The translations under genes and the position numbers were made by a program. From Mytilus galloprovincialis (taxonomy: Eukaryota; Mollusca; Bivalvia; Mytilida; Mytilidae), in NCBI RefSeq assembly GCF_965363235.1, contig NC_134847.1:52856439-52920438 (forward strand): a stretch of 64,000 nt of DNA. The letters are read 5' to 3'. Within the stretch, counting starts at the first letter, position 1, and each line of letters begins with the position of its first letter. The notes under the pieces are model-generated. The model did not search any database. It worked only from the letters and a program-made list of their open reading frames with translations, and had not been told where the DNA came from. Below, piece after piece: positions 1,573-38,679 of this stretch.

Positions 1573-3970
1573 GTAAGTTTAAGCTTTGATTGGGCTAGAC
1601 TATATTTAATCGGAAATAACAGAAAAATAGGTAATGACTCTGTCAGAATAGTCAGCACTGTAATAGGGCCACTTTTGTTCAGAAAAATGACACAATCTTA
1701 GTACAATTGCATTATTATAGTTATTATTATAATTGTCAAAATATGTGATTTGAGCACATACGGATTGGTACTTGGTTGCTTACAACCTTGAGATATGAGA
1801 GATCACAAGCTAAAGTACCAAGGACATGACACATATTAATGGAATGACAATTTAATCAGATACAGTCAATAGCAATGTAGAACAAATGGGTCAGTGCTTC
1901 AATCAAACTTTGTTTCCACAGCATGACCACAATAGCCATTACACCTGTTGCCCTTTAAATATTAATTTACTTAGAAAGTTGTTACAATAGTATCAAATAA
2001 CTACCTCAGGAATATATTACCTAAGCTGTATTTGGCAAAACTTATAGGAATTTTGGTCTTCAATGCTCTTCAACTTCGTACTCTTTTTTGCCTTTTTAAC
2101 ATTTTTTAATTCGAGAGTCACTGATGAGTCTTTTGTAGACAAAACGCGCGTCTGGCATGAATATAAAATTTTAAACCTGGTATCTATGGTGAGTTAATTT
2201 ATACTTCATACGTATACAGAATAACAAGAAATATTCCATTGTTCAGTCTGCTTGCTCACACAATCTCAATGCTATGTTGTTGAAAACCATAATTTTGTAA
2301 AATAAAACAATTATCATCTTGATAAACATGCGTACAAGTTCGGACTATTTTAAGGCAAAATTTAAATATGATATGGAAAGAAACCACGAACTTGAAGACT
2401 AGATGCCTGCTACTATCAAAGATAAGGTATACAAACCAGATTGAAAAATAAGCTAACGTTACGAAGGGTGAAAGAAAATCTACGATAAACCCGAAAAATG
2501 ACGATAAACGAACACGTTAAAAGAACACTATATAGAATACTTGAGACAAAACGTGTTAACTAAATACAACAAAAACATGCGATGATATTTGAAGTGTTTA
2601 TTCTTTAATTTATCGTTCTGAATATTACTTTTACTGTTATAGATATAGGAAGATGGGGAATGAGTGCCAATGAGAAAACTCTTCATTCAAGTCCAAATTT
2701 CTATTGGTCATAATGGTGAAATATAATCCCTTTTGGGTGTAACCATGGCAACAATCTGCATTTCTTTTATAATAAATATTGCAAATAAAGGGGGTGAGCA
2801 TGTAAAAAAAGTCTCCAAAATTTGGTCCAAAGGGAAATTTCAATCAATTACAGTGATACCTTTCCTGAAACCATAGGTTTATATCTATCAAGTGGTCCAA
2901 AAAAAATATCATATGCATTTCTGCTCGTTTTTCCATAAAATTGAATTGAAAAGATCGAGCGAAAAATCTTTGTTGATAAACACTACAATAATTTATCGAC
3001 CTATGGGCGGTACGGATAGACTGTCAAACAGATAAATGGCCTATAAAACAATAAATCTAAATGTACATATAAACACTAAGAAGGCTATATTGTTCTTCAA
3101 TTGTCTAACAATCCATTTTATTGTTCAAAAACTTTCATATTTAAAAAATTCACCATGGCCATAATGCAAACTAAACTTCTAACTGTGTATTGCTACCTAA
3201 GATTCACCGGTGACGCTCAGATCAAAATAATAAAAAAAAAACAAGTACAAAGTTCCTGGTATATATGATGAGTTTATTTACAACCACTGGGTCAATGCCA
3301 CTGCAGGTGGAGATTTATTTCCACGAGGGTATCACCAGCCCAGTAGTAAGCACTTTTGTGTTGACTTGAGTTATCATTGATATGTTTATAATTATAAATT
3401 AACTGTTCACAAGATTTTGAAGTTTTGAAATACTAAGACTTTTCTACCCCAGGAATGGACTACCTTAGCTGTATTTGGCAAAACTTTTAAAAAATTTTGT
3501 TCCTCAATGCTCTTAAACATCGTACTTTATTTGGCCTTTTAACATTTTTTGATTCGAGCATCACTGATGAGTCTTTTGTAGACGAAACGCGCGTCTGGCG
3601 TATATGTAAAATATTATTCCTGATATCTATAATGAGTTTATGGGAAAGCATTGAGGACACAAAGTTTCAAAAGGATGTGCCAAAATCTGATAAAAATTTC
3701 GTCCAAATCCCACAAAAATCTAATATGATTTATTTCTCTCTTTCAGTGGTGTTTATTCTGATAGGCCTTGCTGTATATTCGAGGAATACAGATGAAATCA
3801 CAGCAGGAAAGTACTTCGATTATGGTTACTCATTTGGATTCTGCACAACAGGAATGTGTTTTGCTATTTTGGTCGACTTCATCTTGCTTGTTGACCTTTG
3901 TATGACAAAAAATAACATTCGAAGTCGAGTCGACGTCGAGAAGAAACAAGGACAAAAGGCAAACATTTAG
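1429..3970 (+). CDS. Claudin/PMP22-like four-helix membrane protein, gene 1 (exons 2-3; 5' exon outside)
   Basis: Exons 1429-1572 and 3747-3970, joined phase 1, give 122 codons; the start exon is missing because it lies upstream of base 1. Seen: exon 2 begins with the DWF triplet shared by all visible paralogues, followed by helix 2, a short basic loop (LIKHPENK) and the first half of helix 3. Exon 3 completes helix 3, has an extracellular loop ending in DYGYSF, helix 4 and a basic tail. Family knowledge: claudin/PMP22-type proteins have four helices with cytosolic ends and act in cell contacts or membrane organisation. The diagnostic first-loop motif would be on the missing exon, so the assignment rests on gene 2. 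Expected role, inferred: plasma membrane scaffold or junction protein. Introns hold family A and C repeats. Confidence 0.82.
1985..2205 (+). repeat. Family A repeat, copy 2 (in intron 2 of gene 1)
   Basis: Contains CTGATGAGTCTTTTGTAGAC and ACGCGCGTCTGGC followed by CTGGTATCTATGGTGAGTT. It starts inside the unit at the ACCTCAGGAATATATTACC segment. Confidence 0.75.
2637..2705 (+). repeat. Family C fragment
   Basis: GATATAGGAAGATGGGGAAT then GAGTGCCAATGAGA, the same start as the copy at 1288, truncated after about 65 bp. Confidence 0.6.
3270..3640 (+). repeat. Family A repeat, copy 3, nearly full unit
   Basis: Most complete plus-oriented copy. It includes the CACTGGGTCAATGCC segment, the CGAGGGTATCACCAGCCCAG segment and the hallmark ACGAAACGCGCGTCTGGCG. 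A reading frame open from 3497 runs out of this repeat, through intron sequence, into exon 3 of gene 1. Confidence 0.8.
3747..3970 (+). CDS. Gene 1, exon 3 (terminal)
   Basis: Acceptor TTTCTCTCTTTCAG precedes 3747; stop TAG at 3968-3970. Encodes VVFILIGLAV, the loop ending in DYGYSF, helix 4 and a basic tail rich in K, R and Q. The frame is open 5' of the acceptor as well, but the paralogues align only from here. Confidence 0.87.
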
Positions 3971-12969: not shown

Positions 12970-14880
12970 GTACGTTACTCTTATAACTGATACATAGTAA
13001 ATAATGAACATCATAATTAAAAGATTAGTAGTAGATATCAAAGGAATATACAATAAAATATTTCAAATAAACGGACAACACCATGCAAGAAAAACCCGAA
13101 AAACAGCACAAAGACAAACAGCGATCAACAAGCCACAACACAGAAATCTTAAGACAGCAACACGAACCCACTGATAGGATCTATTATAAAAACTAGACTG
13201 GGGTGATAATTTTTTTGTTTTTTATCACAATGCCGCGACTGGTGGTAATAAGATTGTTTTAATCTTTGATTCTTATTTACACTTAATTTGGTTGGTGTAC
13301 TTGGATTGTTCACTTTAAACGAAAACGAAAAATATAAACAACAGCATGTGAAGAATCATGAAACAGAATACAACAATGTAGACAAGTGTTGATTTTTCTG
13401 TTACTGTTCTTTAAAACTGTAATGGTAATATCCGCAAAATAAGATTAAAAATTGATTGCCAATGAGAAAACTATCCAACTTAATTTATTAATTAATTGAT
13501 TGATTGTTGAGCTATATCATGGCGGTCAGTGTTTATGATTGGCGGAAATTGGAGTGCCCGGAGGGATCCAAAAACCTTCGGTAAACTTACCTGCCAAGTG
13601 TCGGTTTGATACTCACAACCTTAGTTTTTACAGGATAATACTTTCCAACAAAGCTCCTACTATCCACAGACTTCCTAGACTAAATTGAGAAAGATAATAA
13701 AGTTGAATAAATTTCAGAAAAATTGCCATGGAATAAATCAAAAAAGCAAAAAGACTTTTTTATATTATACTTGTTCTTCCAGATTGGTTTCGAATTTGTC
13801 AAGTAATGTGTATCTTTGGGCTAGTTGCTATCTTAACATCGACAGCTTGTATTGCATTGAGATTATTAAAGCTGCGTGAACACAAGATATTGCAAATTGC
13901 TACAATCGTGGGTGTATTCTCAGCAGGTAAGTCTATATTTTGGAATCTGCAAACATTTCACAATGCTGGACCAACCTCTTTTAGTAATGTTTTTTTTAAC
14001 CTTTGTCTTAATACTTTTCTTTGAAGTGTTTTATGTATAAGAGTAATTTTAACATACATTTCTTGTCAATAATCCGCACAAAATTTAATCTAGTAGGTAT
14101 CTGTGATGAGTAAATAAAATTGAGAATGCAAATAGGGAATGTGTCAAAGAGACAACACACCGACCATAGAACAGACAATTGCCATTCCAAGTTTAAATAT
14201 GAAAATTAAACCATATCAGCCATTTCCTGCATTTTGAATTGGACTAATATAATACGTTTAACATATTCTTGTTGAAATACATTTAATATCAATATATAAT
14301 ATAGAAATATAATTTGCATAAGTAAAACGCATTTAATTTGTTTTTAGAGACAATATTTTAAACAATTATTTCCAAACAATAGAGACAAACTGCAGACAAC
14401 AGTACTTGATATATATTAACTAGACAAAATTACAATAAAACAAACTTATTTAAAAAAAAAAATGTTTGTCATTTACAAAAAAGGGGTAAAAAAAGTCAAT
14501 GTATAAATCTAATAATATATAAATATCCATTATTATCGTATCCGTTAACGTTAATAGATTAAAAAAAAAAAAAAGAAAAACCAATAAAAATGTAATTTCA
14601 AATTTGTGAAATTTTTCTATGTCTCTCTAACCATGTTAATACAATCAATATGTCTCTTTCAGTGGTGTTTATTCTCATAGGAGTTGTTTTATATGTGAGG
14701 AATGTGGATGACATCACATCAGGATTAGATTTCTACTATGGTTACTCACTTGCATTTTTCATAGGAGGAATGTGTCTAGCTGCTGTTGTCGAAATTGTCT
14801 TAATTTATGACCTCATAAAGACGAAAAATGACATTCGAAATCGTGTTAAAGACACAGCAAATAAGAATATGAGCTTCTAA
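12765..14880 (+). CDS. Claudin/PMP22-like four-helix membrane protein, gene 2 (complete, 188 residues)
   Basis: Exons 12765-12969, 13783-13926 and 14663-14880 join in phase 1 at both introns and end in TAA. Seen: helix 1 about residues 11-30; a first extracellular loop with GLWKRC then C eight residues later (46-59), the GLW-x2-C-x(8-10)-C signature of claudins; helix 2 about 75-97; helix 3 about 104-128; a second loop ending in YYGYS; helix 4 about 146-168; and a basic C-terminal tail (KTKNDIRNRVK). Known: this superfamily includes claudins, PMP22/EMP and calcium channel gamma subunits. Inferred: a plasma membrane contact or scaffold protein; invertebrate members are too diverged to name. 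No clear PDZ-binding C-terminus. Intron 1 holds a family B copy and intron 2 a family I copy. Confidence 0.88.
13075..13175 (-). repeat. Family B fragment in intron 1 of gene 2
   Basis: GACAAACAGCGATCAACAAG and the CACGAACCCACTGATAGG end match the reverse of the family B copy at 5758. Confidence 0.5.
13783..13926 (+). CDS. Gene 2, exon 2 (144 nt)
   Basis: Acceptor TTGTTCTTCCAG, donor GTAAGT. Encodes DWFRICQVMCIFGL onwards to IVGVFSA. Confidence 0.88.
14105..14190 (-). repeat. Family I fragment in intron 2 of gene 2
   Basis: GGGAATGTGTCAAAGAGACA and ACCATAGAACAGACAAT are the reverse of the copy at 21428-21570. Confidence 0.6.
14663..14880 (+). CDS. Gene 2, exon 3 (terminal)
   Basis: Acceptor GTCTCTTTCAG precedes; ends AGCTTCTAA. 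Encodes VVFILIGVVLYVRN, the second loop, helix 4 and the basic tail. The homologous start VVFILIG in genes 1 and 4 fixes the acceptor. Confidence 0.88.
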
Positions 14881-24420: not shown

Positions 24421-25013
24421 TCCTGTCCCCTTTTGCCCGAATACTACTACCGAATCAAAATTAAATTCAGGTTACATAGATTAGTTATATAAGATGTGTA
24501 TTCGATGCATTTGTTATTCGTCAGCTGCATTCTATGTAAACAGTTTGCAGGCCAAAATTAATTACGTAAACAAACAGTGTTGATAATTCAAAGTTACACC
24601 AAATCTTACTCAGACCATATGTGCATGGGATAGAACAACGTAGAGTTTAGAATGCGTTTGGTGCGTTTTTAAAAATAGAATTTTAGAAAATGTCTTCATC
24701 AATGATATATCACGTCAACACAGGAGCTGCAACTTGGTTGTAAAAATAGTCCACCAGCAGAAGTATCGACACAGTAGTTAAAAACCGTTTTACGAAGAAA
24801 CAGCTAATAATTTAAAAGTATTGTACAGAACATAGTACAAGAATAACTTTTGAATTGCTGATTTTTATTTGATATGTTTTGTGATGTTCCATTTAATTGA
24901 TTTACTGTGTTCAAAGTGGTTTATACATGTATAACTGTTACAATTACAAAAATCGTACAAAGTAAATTATATTTTTTATAACCGTAATCCTTATATTTTA
25001 GGAACTCTTCAAC
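24421..25013. other. Upstream region of the cysteine-rich peptide gene
   Basis: TTATATTTTAG just before base 25003 resembles an acceptor, so a 5' untranslated exon probably lies upstream and the promoter was not located. No other feature seen. Confidence 0.4.
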
Positions 25014-25059
25014 ATGAATAATACAGCCCTTCTTTTAGTTCTTATTGTTTTTGCAGTAG
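25014..25059 (+). CDS. Cysteine-rich gene, signal peptide exon
   Basis: ATGAATAATACAGCCC start; donor GTAAGA after GCAGTAG. Coding phase 1 at its end. The Met is the only one giving a signal peptide in frame with module 1. Confidence 0.75.
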
Positions 25060-28000
25060 GTAAGAACATATCTTTCTAAAAAAGATTCAATATGCTATAT
25101 ACCTTCGGTGCTTACTTAACTTGACCTTAAACAAACGGAAAACATCATTCCATTCGTTTTTAGCGGTATTACCAATATCACCATCTTTAAAATTAACATA
25201 CCATGATCATTGTTGTTTTTGATACATTCTTGTATGATTGAAATTTCGAACGTCTGTTTAATTATTTCATTTATAACTATGTTAGTAATTTGCATCCCTT
25301 ACTAGAAAAGCAAAGTTTCCTTAGATTTCATATGATTTATGAATTGTTTTTAATTTTCATTTGCATTCTTTTGTCATAAAAATTTAAAAACATGCGTGGA
25401 AATGGACCTTGTGGCAGTTACACTTGGTCAAATACATGTATTGGTATTTCTTTAGAAAGTTTATTTTTAAATAAAGTCTGGTGTTTTTGTCTCATTCGTT
25501 CGCTGACTGTCATCACAGTTTCTGCGTTCAAATGAACGTGAAAATAAGTTTGTAGAACTTTCTGAATATTTATTGGGCATGGATTTACACATTAGAACTG
25601 TAAAAAGATTGCATGTTCCGATAAATCCTTTGTAATTCTTTGTTATTGTTATGCAAATTGTACCTCGAATTAATTTTATTGCAAAAATTGTCCATATTCT
25701 AAATAATTAAGAGGGCACCACAGTTTGAACCAATTGAACAGTGGAATGCTACACTAACTAACTTCGTATAACTATTACAAATAAACATTTAGTTTCTTTT
25801 TATAGTATCTACAAATATCTTCTTGTGTTACGATTTTAATCAGAAATCAAATGAAAATATACTAAAAAAATAAATATGTAAACGTGTTAATTTTTGTTTT
25901 CGATTAGGTGTAAAAGAGTCTATTCAACAAGGGAAATGTACTGTCCAATTCTGTACAACCATCAAAAACAGCGCTGGTTGTAATGGATGTTGTGTTGGTC
26001 TGGGATGTACTGGTGGTGGAAAATGCAGTGTATTGAATGGAGTATCTGCCTGTCATTGTAATGGGTGTACTTGTAAGGCATTTTATTAAACTAATTAATA
26101 CATGACCAAACTAAAATTGACAATTCTCAGTCGGAAATTAAATTTTTCATTTCCATTTTGACATTTCTTTAACAATTCAATCAACAGTACTTTACCATTA
26201 TTAAATTCTGATGAATCGACGAAAACGAATAACAAAAGTAACATACAAAGACTAATGGAATCCCAGTAACTTTAAAAGTAGTGAGAACGAGTACATCAAC
26301 ATGATAAGATCTTTCTGCTATGCAGGCATTCCCGTCATACACATCCACACACATTTAAAATGTATGATACAGCCTGTACACTAAACGACAATATCACTAC
26401 TGTAGTTTCTAAGAATATAAAGTTGCGAAAATATGTCGCTAGAGAGATTTAATACATATGTATCATTATGGGTCGTTAAACTTGAGTGTGTCGATTGCAG
26501 TTCTTTTGCCTTATAACTCTATTGGAGTAGTTGTTTGTGTACCGCGCATTCCCTTGCTAAATAAGTCTGTAGACCATAAACGTATGTCAATTGTAAATGT
26601 TTTACGATTTTTTAAAAAATATTTGACTGCTTGGATATTGACAATTGGAAGGTCGGAATCAACACGTATGTCATCATTTTTATTGTGAAGTCGCCTCACT
26701 GTGTCAATATCGGTAATAAGATCAACATTTGAAGCAGATCTTGTAGTTCTTGTATTCACTGGAATTTACGAGACGAATTTAAGCACCTACAGAAATATCA
26801 AAATTGAGAAATAGGACATCCGAAATATATTTAAAAGTGAAACAAAATGTGTTTGCATGATGTTTTAGTATTCACTGTAATTTACGAGACGAATTAAAGC
26901 ACCCGAAGAAATATGGATAATTGAGAAATATGACATTCGAAATATATTTGAAAGTGAAACAAAAACAAATTTGCATGATGTTTTTTTCCTTCGGTACAAA
27001 GTCTACTTTATATGAGTCCAAAAACTGACATTAGTCAGCAGTGGTCCTACTTCATACTCATTAGAATATCGGCTGTCTGCTGAGATAACAAATCATGAAA
27101 CTAAAAATAAGTAATTTTGCTAATTTCTCTTCGATGTACTTGATGTTGACATTGGTGCGCTTCTTCACAAAGAATGAATTTTTATGACAAAAAAGGTTTT
27201 ATTCTTTTTTTGGTCGAAACAGATTTTTTTTATTACTGCAAAATCACTAAAAAGAATTTCCTAATTTGATCAAAACATAATGAGGTTATAATTTTAACAG
27301 CTATGGACAAATGATAGACATTATAAACACGGAATGAATAGTTACATTTAAATGATAAAAGATTTAATTACGAGCACTATGAGTTAGTTTTGTTTCCGAT
27401 TATTTAAAAGCGCGATAATTTAACTTTAAGAAGATTGATATATTAATTTATTAGAATGTCCCAATGGAGCCCAGTTAAACACCGTTTGTAACACAATAAC
27501 ACAGATATAAGAAGATGCGGTATGAGTGCCAATGAGACAAGTCTCCATCCAAGTCACAATTTCAAAAAAGTAAATCATTACTATGCTCACACCGAACAGC
27601 AAGATATACAAGGGCCCCAAAAGTAACAAGTGTAAAACCATTCAAACGGAAATACTAACGGTCTGATCTATATAAAAACGAGAAACGAGAAACAGTTATG
27701 AACCACATCAAGAAACGACAACTACTGAACATAATATTCCTGACTAAGGACAGGTGCAAATAATTGCAGCTGGTTTACATAGAAAGACACACTACAAAAT
27801 ATAAATTGAAATGGCTTATCTCAATCAAAAGACATATTGACACAAGCAAACATACACTGAACGAAAAAAAGTGATCTATGATACAATGTACTTACAAAAT
27901 CAATAAAATAAGGTATGAATAATCAAAGTAACAGTTTTAAACCTCTGCGAAATGGTGACATGTTAAATAATATCAGAAAAACTAAAAGCCCTTGAACAAA

Positions 28001-28174
28001 CGTGATTTTACTTTTATAGCAAAACCAGTACCTCATGAGACGTGTACAAGCACATTCTGTTCTAATGAAAAGCTCGATGATAACGGATGCAAAGGTTGTT
28101 GTCTTGGTATGTTAAATGGTTGTGCCCCCTCCGGTTCTTGCCAAAATTCACATTGTAAATGCAATGACTGTGCG
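25014..28174 (+). CDS. Secreted protein with two tandem ten-cysteine modules
   Basis: Exons 25014-25059, 25908-26072 and 28020-28174, plus a terminal exon near 29786, give about 125 residues. Seen: a hydrophobic signal peptide (residues 1 to about 16, MNNTALLLVLIVFAVG), then module 1 with cysteines spaced C-x4-C-x8-C-x2-CC-x4-C-x5-C-x8-C-x-C-x2-C, then module 2 with C-x4-C-x9-C-x2-CC-x6-C-x5-C-x4-C-x-C-x2-C. The exons enter modules in phase 1, and module 1 is a symmetric 1-1 exon. Known: mussel defensins, mytilins and myticins are small secreted cysteine-rich peptides, many ending in C-x-C-x2-C. The spacing here is not any of those I can recite, so I leave it unnamed. Inferred role: extracellular disulphide-stabilised defence or inhibitor peptide. 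The introns are rich in repeats. Confidence 0.78.
25908..26072 (+). CDS. Cysteine-rich gene, module 1 exon
   Basis: Acceptor TTTTTGTTTTCGATTAG; donor GTAAGG directly after CHCNGCT. 165 nt, phase 1 in and out. If the donor were ignored the frame would add CKAFY and stop, an alternative short form. Confidence 0.8.
26511..26759 (-). other. Coding-like minus-strand frame of unknown origin inside intron 2
   Basis: 82 codons, opening MNTRTTRSASNVDL and containing RVDSDLPIVN, similar to RFESDLHIVN at 15882-16115. No acceptor or donor stands out. Most likely a remnant of a mobile element rather than a gene of its own. Confidence 0.25.
26754..26985 (+). repeat. Tandem duplication, 116-bp unit, two copies
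   Basis: ATTCACTGGAATTTACGAGA at 26754 recurs as ATTCACTGTAATTTACGAGA at 26870. Both are followed by GAGAAATA, CGAAATATATTT and TTTGCATGATGTTTT at the same spacing, with few differences. Confidence 0.85.
27505..27790 (+). repeat. Family C repeat, long copy, in intron 2 of the cysteine-rich gene
   Basis: GATATAAGAAGATGCGGTAT, GAGTGCCAATGAGACAAG, CAAGGGCCCCAAAAGTAAC, AACCATTCAAACGG and the end segment CTGACTAAGGACAGGTGCAA. Best preserved copy in the window. The minus frame 27426-27641 is repeat-derived. Confidence 0.8.
28020..28174 (+). CDS. Cysteine-rich gene, module 2 exon
   Basis: Acceptor TTTTACTTTTATAG; donor GTAAGT after KCNDCA. Ten cysteines align one-to-one with module 1; the two regions between Cys 5 and 6 and between Cys 7 and 8 differ in length. 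It ends in phase 0, unlike module 1. Confidence 0.8.
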
Positions 28175-28199
28175 GTAAGTATTTTATAATTAGTAGTGG

Positions 28200-28390
28200 T
28201 GTGTCTACAATGCCTGTACCAAGTCAGGACATGAACATGATTTATACGATGCGACTGTCATACAAGTGAGAGAATTAGCTAGCTATAAAACCAGGTTTAA
28301 TCTACCATTTTCTAATAAGAAAATACCAATAACAAGTAAGGAATATGCCACTTGTTATCTTTTCGTTTGATGTATTTGTGCTTTTAACGA
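28200..28390 (-). repeat. Family E repeat (reverse, partial)
   Basis: GCTAGCTATAAAACCAGGTT, ACCATTTTCTAATAAGAAAA and GTTATCTTTTCGTTTGATGT match 32310-32520. The retroelement remnant that follows abuts it near 28388. Confidence 0.65.
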
Positions 28391-28861
28391 TTGATAATCT
28401 TTACGCTTTATCGGATCAATATCGACTAAAACACTTTGCGCATTCCCACTTAGACTTGTCGCAAGAAACATTGCTTTCTGATTATCCGTCCAACAATTTA
28501 ATTCGGATATCATTTCAAACTGAATTTTATAATCTTCCCAAGGAACAGAACCATCATAATTTGAGGGTGGGACAACTAGCTTTTCAATTTTCATACGCTT
28601 GGATGAATTCGATCCTTGATTCCCAAAAGGTTGGAACACGGATGGAATCGGCGATCTTCTCGGAGTCGGAGCACTTGAAATTTCTTCCTGAAGAGATTCA
28701 TACTCTTTGGTTAAACGCCGAATTTCTCTTTGGGTTTCAATCATTCTAGGCGTTGAAGATGATAACACAGTTGAACTAAATCCTATTCCCGTATCCATTG
28801 ATACTTTAGGTCCTGCACCTCCGAAATAGATTTCTTTATCAGAAAAACCACGTTTATCCAT
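28388..28861 (-). mobile_element. Ty3/Gypsy-type gag fragment (fossil)
   Basis: About 160 codons on the minus strand with the gag signature PSNYDGSVPWEDYKIQFE and ATSLSGNAQ, typical of Ty3/Gypsy gag proteins of invertebrates. The element is broken: only the start of gag remains, ending where family E sequence begins, and no protease, reverse transcriptase or integrase follows. It lies antisense in the last intron of the cysteine-rich peptide gene. The open frame suggests moderate age, but only one LTR-like end is present, so it cannot be dated. Confidence 0.75.
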
Positions 28862-28869
28862 TTTATAAC

Positions 28870-29590
28870 AATTTAATTACAGTTACTTTATTTACACACA
28901 AGAAATATTTAATCCTCTCACACAGAATTATCGGACTATTACTATTAATCCCTGAATATAATTAATCCATGTTAATAATATCCACACCGCTGCCACTAAA
29001 AAATGTAACGTGATCGAGGGGAGGTCAACACCGACACAGACGGACGGACATAGCCATCTATGGCACGACAATATATCCTGTGGTAAATTTCCAGTAACTA
29101 AATAATACGGTATTTATATATACAAGTTTATTAACAAATGTACATTACTTCAGACACATTGACAAAGTTAGCTACAAAGTTTAAACATATAAACTTTAAA
29201 TACAAGTCCTCCAGAATCTAACTGATTCAAGACTTCAAGGAATACACATCCTTTCAGTATCACAGCTGATACACAATCTCCCAGTCTCTTGACCAACTGA
29301 CCTTATCATAGAGTTTAATTACTTCATCTCTAGACAAACAAATAGGCATAACTAATTTTATTATCCTACACACCAGGACATCGTTTCTGGTCTTAATCAC
29401 ATCTGACAGTTCAACTTTAACTGCAGATAATAAACTAGCAACTTGTCAAATTAGCCTTGCGTCATTAATTTCTCAGTACACAAAATAAACAGTTATAAAG
29501 CCAAACTAACTAGAGGTCAATATTTACAAAACATTAAAATATTACAATATATAACTGTGCATATTGAGGAATAACTGTTTTCACAATCGA
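28870..29590 (-). repeat. Leader and LTR-like end of the Ty3/Gypsy remnant (fossil)
   Basis: On the minus strand, a TGGCAGCGG primer-binding-like site (about 28995) follows an LTR-like block bounded by TGTAAC at 29004 in window orientation. A TATATAAATA box lies near 29115-29124. The outer edge, about 29590, is approximate. No partner LTR is in the window. Confidence 0.45.
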
Positions 29591-29785
29591 GGACCAATAA
29601 TGTCCAATAAGGTATATTTTTTTTATTTTTTTTTAATTATATTTGGGACAAATTGATTACATTTGTTGTTTATTGGATTTGTAAATAGTGATGTTTAAAC
29701 ACTTATTTTAGCATACAAAGTTTATTTAAGATTTTCTTTATTGGAAAAGTTAGGTATTTAAAAAAAATGTATAATGTCATTTTAG

Positions 29786-29797
29786 AGAAAACCATGA
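29786..29797 (+). CDS. Putative terminal exon of the cysteine-rich gene
   Basis: Acceptor TGTCATTTTAG precedes base 29786. In the phase left by module 2 it adds RKP then TGA, and AATAAA follows at 29841. An acceptor two bases further on would change the phase and give a longer, strongly basic tail starting KTMTRTRTRKRK. Which is used cannot be decided by reading. Confidence 0.4.
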   Translation, partial: RKP

Positions 29798-29840: not shown

Positions 29841-29846
29841 AATAAA
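29841..29846 (+). promoter_or_regulatory. Candidate polyadenylation signal, cysteine-rich gene
   Basis: AATAAA 44 nt after the putative TGA. Confidence 0.45.
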
Positions 29847-35900: not shown

Positions 35901-37720
35901 TAAAAATGAGGTTTGTCTCGTCCGTTTTTTTACTGAATTTTCACGGTCACGTGACTCTATTGTTGCTGATAAACTTGGGGTCAAACCGTGACCTGCTTTC
36001 CAACTGTTTTGGTAAGGACACAATACAATTTGTTACGAATGTGCTACGTAACGGGATGTTTTTATTACGTTGTAATACGGATAGCTAGGTATCAGCCAGG
36101 GTTCTTAGAGTCTATTACGGTTTACTACGTTACAACACGACAAAATACGGAATACTGTGGATTCTTTTATTTTCGTTGGTACCAATTTTCGTGGAATTCG
36201 GAAACCTCGAATTTTCTTGGATATTTGATTTCAAGGTTCAAAGTTCGGAAACAACTTTATAGAAATTTGATTTTCGTTGATCATTAAAATTCGTTGTTCA
36301 CCTGTACCCATGAAACCCAAAAATATTGGTCCAAACTAATAATAATGAAACCACATTATTGTGTCTGTAACGACGACAGACTAATATAAGGCTAGCTTCT
36401 CCAACATGAAGAACTGCTGCTTGCAAATAATTGACTGGAATTGGATATTGATATGACACAAAATGATAAGGTAGGTCGAGATACTTGATGACAGACGTAG
36501 AGGTGACAGGAGGGCGAGTAGATGGTGGTCTAGGGACTGAATTCCCTATCCATGGCCAGTTTGAGCCCCTCATGACTCAATTGTGTGCGGAAAATTCAGC
36601 TACATTTAAGAACTTTGAAAGGTTAATCCTACATATGCTTCAAGAACTGCTCCATGTTATTGGTCCAATGATTACGAATAACACTACATAGTACAGACAG
36701 ACAGATACATGATTATGACACGTGTCGTTGTGTACTAAACCGTTTCGTTTCCGTATTTTACAGTGTCTTACCGTAAGAACCCGTATCACTCATGTCGCCA
36801 AAATGAACCCCGCCCTTCATTATCCGTGGATGTAACGTCAAAACCCGTAGTCATACCGTTGTGCATCCGTATAAGATCCGTATAAAACTACGGAAACTCT
36901 ATTTCCTTGATCATCCGTGAGATTTACTCCGTAGCGGATCCGGCGAGGTGATCCGTGAATGTGTGACCTAGGCATTAAACCTGGTTAAAACCGACAATAT
37001 TTTTTTTCCATTATTACTGATATTACATTTTAAAAAATCACTGTATACCCACCAGCAGCGAATGTTGTTCCAATAGCAGCAAAGAATACTGGCTTCATCT
37101 CTCGGAGAAGGAACAACTTCAATCCAGTCAAAACAGCTGCAGCCAGAAGGGAAATTAATCCGAAGATACTCATAACTCTACATGCTCTAAACCAATCTAT
37201 ATATAGAAGAAAAATAACAACGTTAATCTTAGATGCTAGAATATGGAATAACAAAGGTTGCATCAAAATTTGAGGGTGCAGATTGCATATAAAAAATAAT
37301 CGGCTTTACGATAACGACATTTCCGGCGTATATGGTTTACCAGTTGATAAAAATTGATATATAAGTATTTACATTATAACATTTTACTATTAGCCGACCG
37401 TGCAAGGACTGTATAGCCAGTCAAAGTTGTTAAAACCCTCCATGTATATATTTTACTATAACAGTCGTGCATTGTATTATTTAGTAATTAATTATTCATA
37501 CTATACCTTTATCTTCCACGGTTTCTGATATATCCGCACATGATTTAACACCAAGGGTAGTGGTACAAATTTTCCATAATCCAGCATGCGCACTGACTTT
37601 AATCACCGAAGCATCAACCGTGATATAGTTTGGTGTGGCAAATCCAATAAGATCAAAGAGAAATGCTACTAGGATCAGTATAAAGCTGATCAACAAAATC
37701 TTGGATATTTCTATAGCCAT
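32764..37720 (-). CDS. Claudin/PMP22-like four-helix membrane protein, gene 3 (complete, 183 residues)
   Basis: Exons on the minus strand: 37720-37507, 37196-37053 and 32957-32764, phase 1 at both introns, stop TGA. Seen: helix 1 about residues 7-26; the loop motif GLWKIC with a second C eight residues on; exon 2 starting DWFRACRVM; helices 2 and 3; a second loop with DYDFSYG; helix 4; and a short tail (MGTSLPKVQSN) lacking the basic run of genes 1 and 2. I chose the Met of MAIEI over an upstream in-frame Met because it aligns with gene 2. Donors GTATAG and GTGGGT are less usual than those of gene 2. Intron 2 is 4.1 kb and holds two Harbinger-type elements. Role by family: plasma membrane contact or scaffold protein. 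Confidence 0.87.
33303..33618. mobile_element. Harbinger-type MITE rich in TTCGAATT sites
   Basis: Termini TGCCCCGTTCACACGTA and its inverse TACGTGTGAAATCAGCA, flanked by TTA on both sides (33300-33302 and 33619-33621). The 316-bp interior is filled with ATTCGAAT, GAATCGAAT and AATTCGAATT palindromes. The TTA duplication fits PIF/Harbinger. Confidence 0.7.
33680..36974 (+). mobile_element. PIF/Harbinger transposon with truncated transposase
   Basis: Inverted termini TGCCTATGTTACACATTCAC and (reversed) TGCCTAGGTCACACATTCAC match at 22 of the first 24 bases, with TTA duplicated outside (33677-33679, 36975-36977). Both subterminal regions carry many CCGTA, TACGG and TCCGTA words. Near the right end a plus frame encodes FEPLMTQLC, FKNFERL and ELLHVIGPMI, matching the N-terminal pattern of Harbinger transposases (L-x2-EL, FxNFxR, ELLxxVxPxI). 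The DDE core is missing, so the copy is not autonomous. It is inserted in intron 2 of gene 3. Confidence 0.8.
36485..36691 (+). pseudogene. Harbinger transposase N-terminal remnant
   Basis: 68 codons. The segment GQFEPLMTQLCAENSATFKN followed by an ELL-x-VIGP block resembles transposase N-termini of mollusc Harbinger elements, then ends at ITNNTT. The opposite-strand frame at 36298-36573 is its shadow. Confidence 0.6.
37053..37196 (-). CDS. Gene 3, exon 2 (144 nt)
   Basis: Acceptor TTTTCTTCTATATATAG, donor GTGGGT on the minus strand. Encodes DWFRACRVMSIFGL to TTFAA. Confidence 0.87.
37507..37720 (-). CDS. Gene 3, exon 1
   Basis: Encodes MAIEISKILL to SETVEDK plus one base. An acceptor-like AATTTTTCAG lies about 20 nt upstream of the ATG, suggesting a separate 5' untranslated exon. 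Confidence 0.86.
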
Positions 37721-37738
37721 CTTTATCCGAAATAACAA

Positions 37739-38679
37739 GTCTGAAAAATTAATAAAATAAAATACGAATTTGTACTTTCAGAAATTAAAGATGAACATTT
37801 CAACGATATGACTTCATAGACAATGATAAGAAATTAAGACATGTTTAACTTGTTTTGGACTGGGCTTAAATAAGCACCTGGTTACAATATACATGAGAAA
37901 GTGAATAAGTTTTAAATTACATGTAGTAGAAATTGTTTGATTGCGAATGACACAACTTTCCAACAGAGCCAGTACGACATGGATTTTAAGCGATTATGCA
38001 TGGCAGAGCAAATGTACAAAACCAACAAGTTATTATTACGTTTACGTTGATACACTGTCCTAAAATAGATCAGAATTGTGCATGGATATTGTGAACGTAT
38101 TTATGAAATAAATGATGAAACCTAAAATTGATACAATATTTTGAGGTGTTTGATCTTTCCGTCGAAAAGACAATAAAAAAGACAAACTCTGAATATAAAA
38201 TCATTTGTATATGTAACTGTATTTGTTTTACATCCCTTGTTTATTGTAGAAATGAATTACCAATTGGATACAGCTATAGAATATTAGTTAAAACATGAAC
38301 TAAACTTTGTCGAGCTTCGCTGAGCGATTTGAGGCATGATGAATGATGTTCGATCAAGCACATGGTTTGTGAGCATTTCCCGAATCGTTATTAAAAAAAC
38401 GTTTTAGTTTTCCATGCCTAAGTATCTTCTGCTTTCTGTATTTCTGTAAGACCGAAAACCACGCTATGACCAATAGTATTAAAAATGGCATTAAATACCA
38501 ATCGATCTATTAACCAATATAACTTGTATGGGTCAAATTGACATAGTAAAAGATTGTGAATGTATGATTACAACTGCAGAAATTCAATGAAGTATCTTTA
38601 TCATATTCCTCGCAAGATTTTTGAAATATGTTTAACATATTTTGTCATGCATAAGGAAACATGGTTAGTATAAATAGTG
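37739..38679. other. Upstream region of gene 3
   Basis: Presumed to hold the 5' untranslated exon and promoter; neither can be placed. No repeat family assigned. Confidence 0.35.

What the first reader, a model, noticed from the sequence alone, without database searches (positions are those of the whole stretch)
25014..29797. Unnamed secreted protein with two ten-cysteine modules
Signal peptide plus two exon-encoded modules sharing C-x4-C-x8/9-C-x2-CC-x4/6-C-x5-C-x4/8-C-x-C-x2-C. I cannot match this spacing to mussel defensin, mytilin or myticin patterns. It may be an undescribed defence or inhibitor peptide family in which two domains are joined in one chain.
Basis: partly seen in the sequence, partly recalled or inferred. 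Interest (0 to 1): 0.75.

Follow-up and report, generated by a model that had tools for sequence, protein, structure and literature searches.

The report
Two-module defensin-like mussel peptide gene
A mussel gene appears to encode a secreted protein made of two linked ten-cysteine units that look like a distant branch of the defensins, and the same genome holds a larger family of single-unit relatives.

Summary
A signal-peptide exon (25014-25059) and two module exons (25908-26072, 28020-28174) carry exactly the stated ten-cysteine spacing, which is found nowhere else in the window and 0 times in 300 simulated windows. The modules belong to a real gene family: two single-module genes on C6 at 94.4 Mb and a 14-locus cluster on C6 at 80.97-81.23 Mb. 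In eight chosen modules all ten cysteines are invariant; module 1 evolves under purifying selection.

The spacing differs from mussel defensin, mytilin and myticin, yet holds the defensin-fold (CS-alpha-beta) framework: C-x3-C, G-x-C, C-x-C-x2-C. AlphaFold gives module 1 a helix and hairpin (mean pLDDT 66), and 32 of 41 weak PDB matches, MGD-1 included, are CS-alpha-beta proteins. Module 2 did not fold confidently.

Best reading: a two-module, defensin-like secreted host-defence peptide of a ten-cysteine family that I found in no open paper searched. That one transcript joins both modules is inferred from the single signal exon and matching phases. Expression and activity are untested; subscription papers and mollusc transcripts were out of reach.

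The parts
25002..25059 (+). Exon with the start codon (CDS 25014-25059): signal peptide MNNTALLLVLIVFAV plus one base; an acceptor-like AG just upstream suggests a further non-coding exon
   Evidence: homologous 15-codon-plus-one-base signal exons precede 4 of the 6 module loci in the C6 stretches read
25908..26072 (+). Module exon 1 (phase 1 at both ends); ten-cysteine module at 25937-26068
   Evidence: purifying selection against its two nearest paralogues; CS-alpha-beta model
28020..28174 (+). Module exon 2 (enters in phase 1, leaves in phase 0); ten-cysteine module at 28043-28171
   Evidence: own fold not resolved
29786..29797 (+). Proposed last coding exon, residues R-K-P and stop
   Evidence: acceptor and frame read directly; use not shown
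29841..29846 (+). AATAAA, possible polyadenylation signal of the last exon

Best explanation
The gene encodes a small secreted protein of two tandem defensin-fold (CS-alpha-beta) modules, each held by five disulfides. By analogy with MGD-1 I predict C3-C8 and C5-C9 (helix to second strand), C6-C10 and C2-C7, plus a fifth bond C1-C4 that the eight-cysteine mussel defensins lack. The second module arose by duplication of a phase-1 module exon, in a family whose other readable members carry one module. It most likely acts as a host-defence peptide in haemolymph or at a mucosal surface by binding microbial surface molecules; two linked heads of low net charge suggest bivalent binding rather than bulk membrane disruption. 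Shown: the modules, the family, cysteine invariance, purifying selection on module 1. Predicted with moderate support: the fold of module 1. Inferred: joined transcript, disulfide pairing, defence function, bivalent action.
For: Exact module pair, 0 in 300 simulated windows. Paralogues in the same genome with all ten cysteines kept in eight chosen modules. dN/dS about 0.29 and 0.22 for module 1 against its nearest paralogues. Phase-1 acceptor before 16 of 16 module exons inspected, as in the two mussel defensin exons L014 and L015 (read by eye). One similar signal exon on the + strand of the window and none between the modules. Module 1 model: helix, strand, strand; 32 of 41 Foldseek rows are CS-alpha-beta proteins, MGD-1 at rank 12 with TM 0.56/0.66. 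Family profile against mussel defensins scores 19.5; 0 of 100 full and 1 of 100 cysteine-keeping column shuffles reach it. G-x-C before C7 in 7 of 8 modules. Tandem cluster with basic, arginine-rich members, as expected of defence peptides.
Against: All Foldseek E-values are above 0.3, and the other four models of module 1 have pLDDT 41-55. Module 2 gave pLDDT 48 and no CS-alpha-beta fold. The defensin profile alignment has probability 20% and spans only 23 columns of the C-terminal half, without the C-x3-C part; myticin and mytilin profiles score no better than shuffles. Net charge of the window modules is only +3 and +1. The donor at 26072 lacks the usual G before GT. Several cluster modules have 11 cysteines, an odd number. 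No transcript, tissue or activity data.
Confidence: 0.5

Rival explanations
1. It is a knottin (inhibitor cystine knot) peptide like the mussel CRP-I peptides, some of which carry several arrays in one chain, and acts as an inhibitor or signalling peptide.
For: Shares a C..C..CC..C..C core order, and multi-array CRP-I precursors exist (PMC10138031, passages).
Against: The printed CRP-I spacing C(X3-6)C(X1-7)CC(X3-4)C(X3-5)C is not met by either module. CRP-I arrays all lie in one final exon, here each module has its own exon. The model of module 1 is helix-strand-strand.
Confidence: 0.12
2. The fold is defensin-like but the role is not antimicrobial: for example a protease or channel inhibitor, or a cytokine-like signal.
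For: Low net charge of both window modules; CS-alpha-beta proteins include channel toxins; no expression evidence.
Against: Strongly basic paralogues in a tandem cluster resemble defence gene families.
Confidence: 0.25
3. The two modules are not joined: module 1 and module 2 are separate transcripts, or module 2 is a dead exon left by a tandem duplication.
For: Each module exon reads on to a nearby in-frame stop; the paralogous genes read end within the module exon; module 2 is the most divergent row of the tree and its dS is saturated.
Against: No second signal exon was found on the + strand of the window; module 2 keeps all ten cysteines, an acceptor in the right phase and a strong GTAAGT donor.
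Confidence: 0.22

Closest known systems
Mussel (arthropod-type) defensins MGD-1 and MGD-2
   Same: C-x3-C, G-x-C and C-x-C-x2-C framework; C5-to-C7 distance of module 1 equal to the matching distance in MGD-1; phase-1 intron between signal and mature part (L014, L015); best profile score of the three mussel families tried; MGD-1 among the fold matches
   Different: Ten cysteines instead of eight, CC in the helix, other spacing, two modules in one gene, lower charge, no Pfam Defensin_2 match
Mytilins and myticins
   Same: Secreted, cysteine-rich, mussel; myticin shares the C-x4-C start and the C-x8-C-x-C-x2-C end with module 1 (sequences)
   Different: Eight cysteines, other middle spacing, no profile signal above shuffles
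CRP-I peptides of mussels (knottins)
   Same: Secreted cysteine-rich, some with several arrays per chain (PMC10138031, passages)
   Different: Six cysteines per array with other spacing; all arrays in one exon
Myticofensins (Liu 2022)
   Same: Recently named mussel CS-alpha-beta families (PMC10138031 and PMC12055553, passages)
   Different: Cannot tell: the original paper was not read and no sequence was seen
Ten-cysteine reference array of CS-alpha-beta peptides
   Same: The array allows extra cysteines such as CXXCC (PMC5116183, passages)
   Different: It is a naming scheme, not a family; no named peptide with this array was seen there in the passages read

Membership tests
CS-alpha-beta superfamily (defensin fold) | Framework C..C-x3-C..C..C-x-C | tested here: met
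   Both modules ('defensin' pattern rows)
CS-alpha-beta superfamily (defensin fold) | One helix packed on a two-stranded sheet | tested here: inconclusive
   Module 1 yes, pLDDT 66; module 2 no confident fold
CS-alpha-beta superfamily (defensin fold) | Disulfides C3-C8 and C5-C9 (module numbering) | not testable with these tools
   No coordinates or chemistry at hand
Mussel/arthropod defensin (Pfam Defensin_2) | Match to the family profile | tested here: not met
   0 Pfam families for the protein, each module and the 8 members; the same profile finds 2 other loci in this genome
Mussel/arthropod defensin (Pfam Defensin_2) | Eight cysteines with MGD-type spacing | tested here: not met
   Ten cysteines with other spacing
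Mytilin / myticin | Eight-cysteine array of the family | tested here: not met
   Spacing differs; profile scores within shuffles
CRP-I knottin | C(X3-6)C(X1-7)CC(X3-4)C(X3-5)C | tested here: not met
   By spacing, against the pattern printed in PMC10138031
Myticusin | Similarity to the printed 104-residue sequence | tested here: not met
   By eye only: the cysteine layout printed in PMC5484132 differs
Myticofensin | Sequence or cysteine array of the family | not tested
   No sequence seen; original paper not read
Antimicrobial peptide (function) | Kills or inhibits microbes; expressed in immune tissue | not testable with these tools
   No expression or activity data

The most novel reading that the evidence does not exclude
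A previously undescribed ten-cysteine branch of the defensin fold in mussels, with a tandem cluster of basic single-module genes and one derived gene in which a symmetrical module exon was duplicated to make a bivalent, nearly neutral two-headed defensin.
Probability: 0.4. Interest if true: 0.6.

Novelty: new variant of a known kind. Interest (0 to 1): 0.45.

Why it matters
Mussels rely on many small cysteine-rich peptides whose relationships are unclear. A family with a likely fifth disulfide, a genomic cluster with arginine-rich loops and a two-module gene would give a natural series for testing how defensins gain disulfides, charge and valency, and its exon phases show how modules can be added in frame.

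Tried and rejected
Pfam and PDB sequence searches with the protein, its modules and the family profile gave no usable hit; the single phmmer row, a viral glycoprotein at E 0.14, I take as chance. Myticusin was considered because it has ten cysteines and set aside on its printed sequence. The hit at C7:13469806 (E 0.005) covers the C-terminal, arginine-rich part; its 400-base stretch holds no open frame of 25 or more codons with six cysteines, so it is not counted. The C4:34923909 hit (E 6) was not examined and is not counted. A tree of nine modules left module 2 unplaced (0 of 6 inner branches fully supported; module 2 branch 3.95). A first scan for signal exons missed the one of the 94417 gene; a similarity scan found it. 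Motif strings of the family were found in 0 papers. Profile scans of viral and prokaryote contigs could not be run, because the alignment lacks a conserved stretch.

Full report
The observation. The window is bases 52856439-52920438 of contig C10 in a 1.38-Gb genome. The gene reads: acceptor, signal exon 25014-25059, module exon 25908-26072, module exon 28020-28174, last coding exon 29786-29797, AATAAA at 29841.

A gene family, not an isolated curiosity. Searching the genome with the modules finds two single-module genes on C6 (94417222 and 94435660). It also finds a cluster on C6 between 80968500 and 81230045 with 14 module loci in the union. Of these 14, 2 have stop codons inside the match (81189019, 81229860) and 1 more (81166299, L024) has lost C6 and C10, a pair that would be bonded in a defensin-like module. 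No other copy on C10 was found. The counts are lower bounds by the tool's own statement. Three cluster members (L016-L018) have long arginine-rich insertions between C7 and C8; L016 has net charge +19, the window modules +3 and +1. The five cluster modules counted have 11 (4 of 5) or 12 (1 of 5) cysteines.

Evidence that it is real coding sequence. In an alignment of eight modules (both window modules, the two from 94.4 Mb and four chosen from the cluster; near-copies, the arginine-rich type and the damaged L024 left out) all ten cysteines are invariant; an arginine-rich member keeps them too. Module 1 against its two nearest paralogues gives dN/dS of about 0.29 and 0.22, and these two against each other 0.24 (Nei-Gojobori, about 40 codons each, dS high). 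For module 1 against module 2 dS is saturated, so selection on module 2 rests on its kept cysteines. An acceptor in phase 1 lies ahead of 16 of 16 module exons inspected (phase read by eye). In the C6 stretches read whole, 4 of 6 module loci have their own signal exon of 15 codons plus one base; the 2 without one are those with stop codons.

One gene or two. One such signal exon was found on the + strand of the window and none between the modules. Module exon 1 begins and ends in phase 1 and module exon 2 begins in phase 1, so they join in frame. Against this, each module exon reads on to a nearby stop, and the paralogues read end within the module exon. The 26072 donor lacks the usual G before GTAAGG. 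I put the two-module reading at about 0.78, to be settled by RNA reads.

What the module is. [quoted passage not shown] The distance from C5 to C7 in module 1 is 11 positions, as between the matching cysteines of MGD-1; in module 2 it is 13. CXXCC is a variant foreseen in the published reference array for this superfamily (PMC5116183, passages). AlphaFold on module 1 alone gave helix, strand, strand (mean pLDDT 66; the other four models 41-55). Foldseek listed 41 PDB chains with E up to 10, the best at 0.34; 32 of 41 are CS-alpha-beta proteins (plant, fungal, nematode and mussel defensins, scorpion toxins and relatives; my grouping of Blo t 19, Art v 1 and brazzein here is recalled), the other 9 assorted. 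Module 2, with module 1 as its only aligned row, gave mean pLDDT 48 and only a C-terminal hairpin.

Profile comparison. The family profile against mussel defensins scored 19.5 (probability 20%, 23 columns of the C-terminal half, E 0.0011). 0 of 100 full column shuffles and 1 of 100 cysteine-keeping shuffles reached it; the reversed profile scored 12.4. Against myticin 18 of 100 full and 32 of 100 cysteine-keeping shuffles reached the score, against mytilin 66 and 75 of 100. The known mussel families score 10.6-15.0 against one another, so this family sits at least as close to mussel defensin as they sit to each other, though the profiles differ in length and depth. This is suggestive, not proof.

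Mechanism. A secreted, disulfide-locked protein with two defensin-like heads. I propose recognition of microbial surface molecules by each head, with avidity from linkage. Oyster defensins bind lipid II (PMC10608444, passage), a plausible type of target but untested here. The low charge argues against simple membrane disruption. This step is inference throughout.

Novelty. No Pfam family, no convincing PDB sequence and no paper match was found (topic searches). Papers were seen as passages only: PMC5484132, PMC7168163 (also its outline), PMC10138031, PMC5116183, PMC9656538, PMC6401078, PMC10608444, PMC11925980, PMC12055553, PMC12551460. The library misses most subscription journals; I did not read the original myticusin and myticofensin papers, and no mollusc transcript or protein collection could be searched, so 'undescribed' is provisional.

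Noticed in passing
C6:80968500-81230045 (L016-L025, L031-L046): A tandem cluster of 14 related loci, some with arginine-rich loops of about 20-40 residues between C7 and C8 and an odd (eleventh) cysteine that could allow dimers; 2 of 14 have stop codons.
   Followed up: partly
28358-28876, - strand: A 173-codon open frame inside the proposed last intron. It looked to me like a retroelement gag piece, but Pfam gave only sub-cut-off LapA and DivIC rows, so this is an impression.
   Followed up: partly
3491-3967 (+), 13737-14877 (+), 37033-37777 (-): Pieces of claudin/PMP22-like four-helix membrane protein genes, on both sides of the peptide gene; all Pfam rows are below the curated cut-off and 37033-37305 had none.
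   Followed up: partly
C7:5462742-5462840 (L015): A second, divergent mussel defensin exon over the Pfam Defensin_2 cut-off, on another contig than the MGD-like exon on C4 (L014).
   Followed up: no
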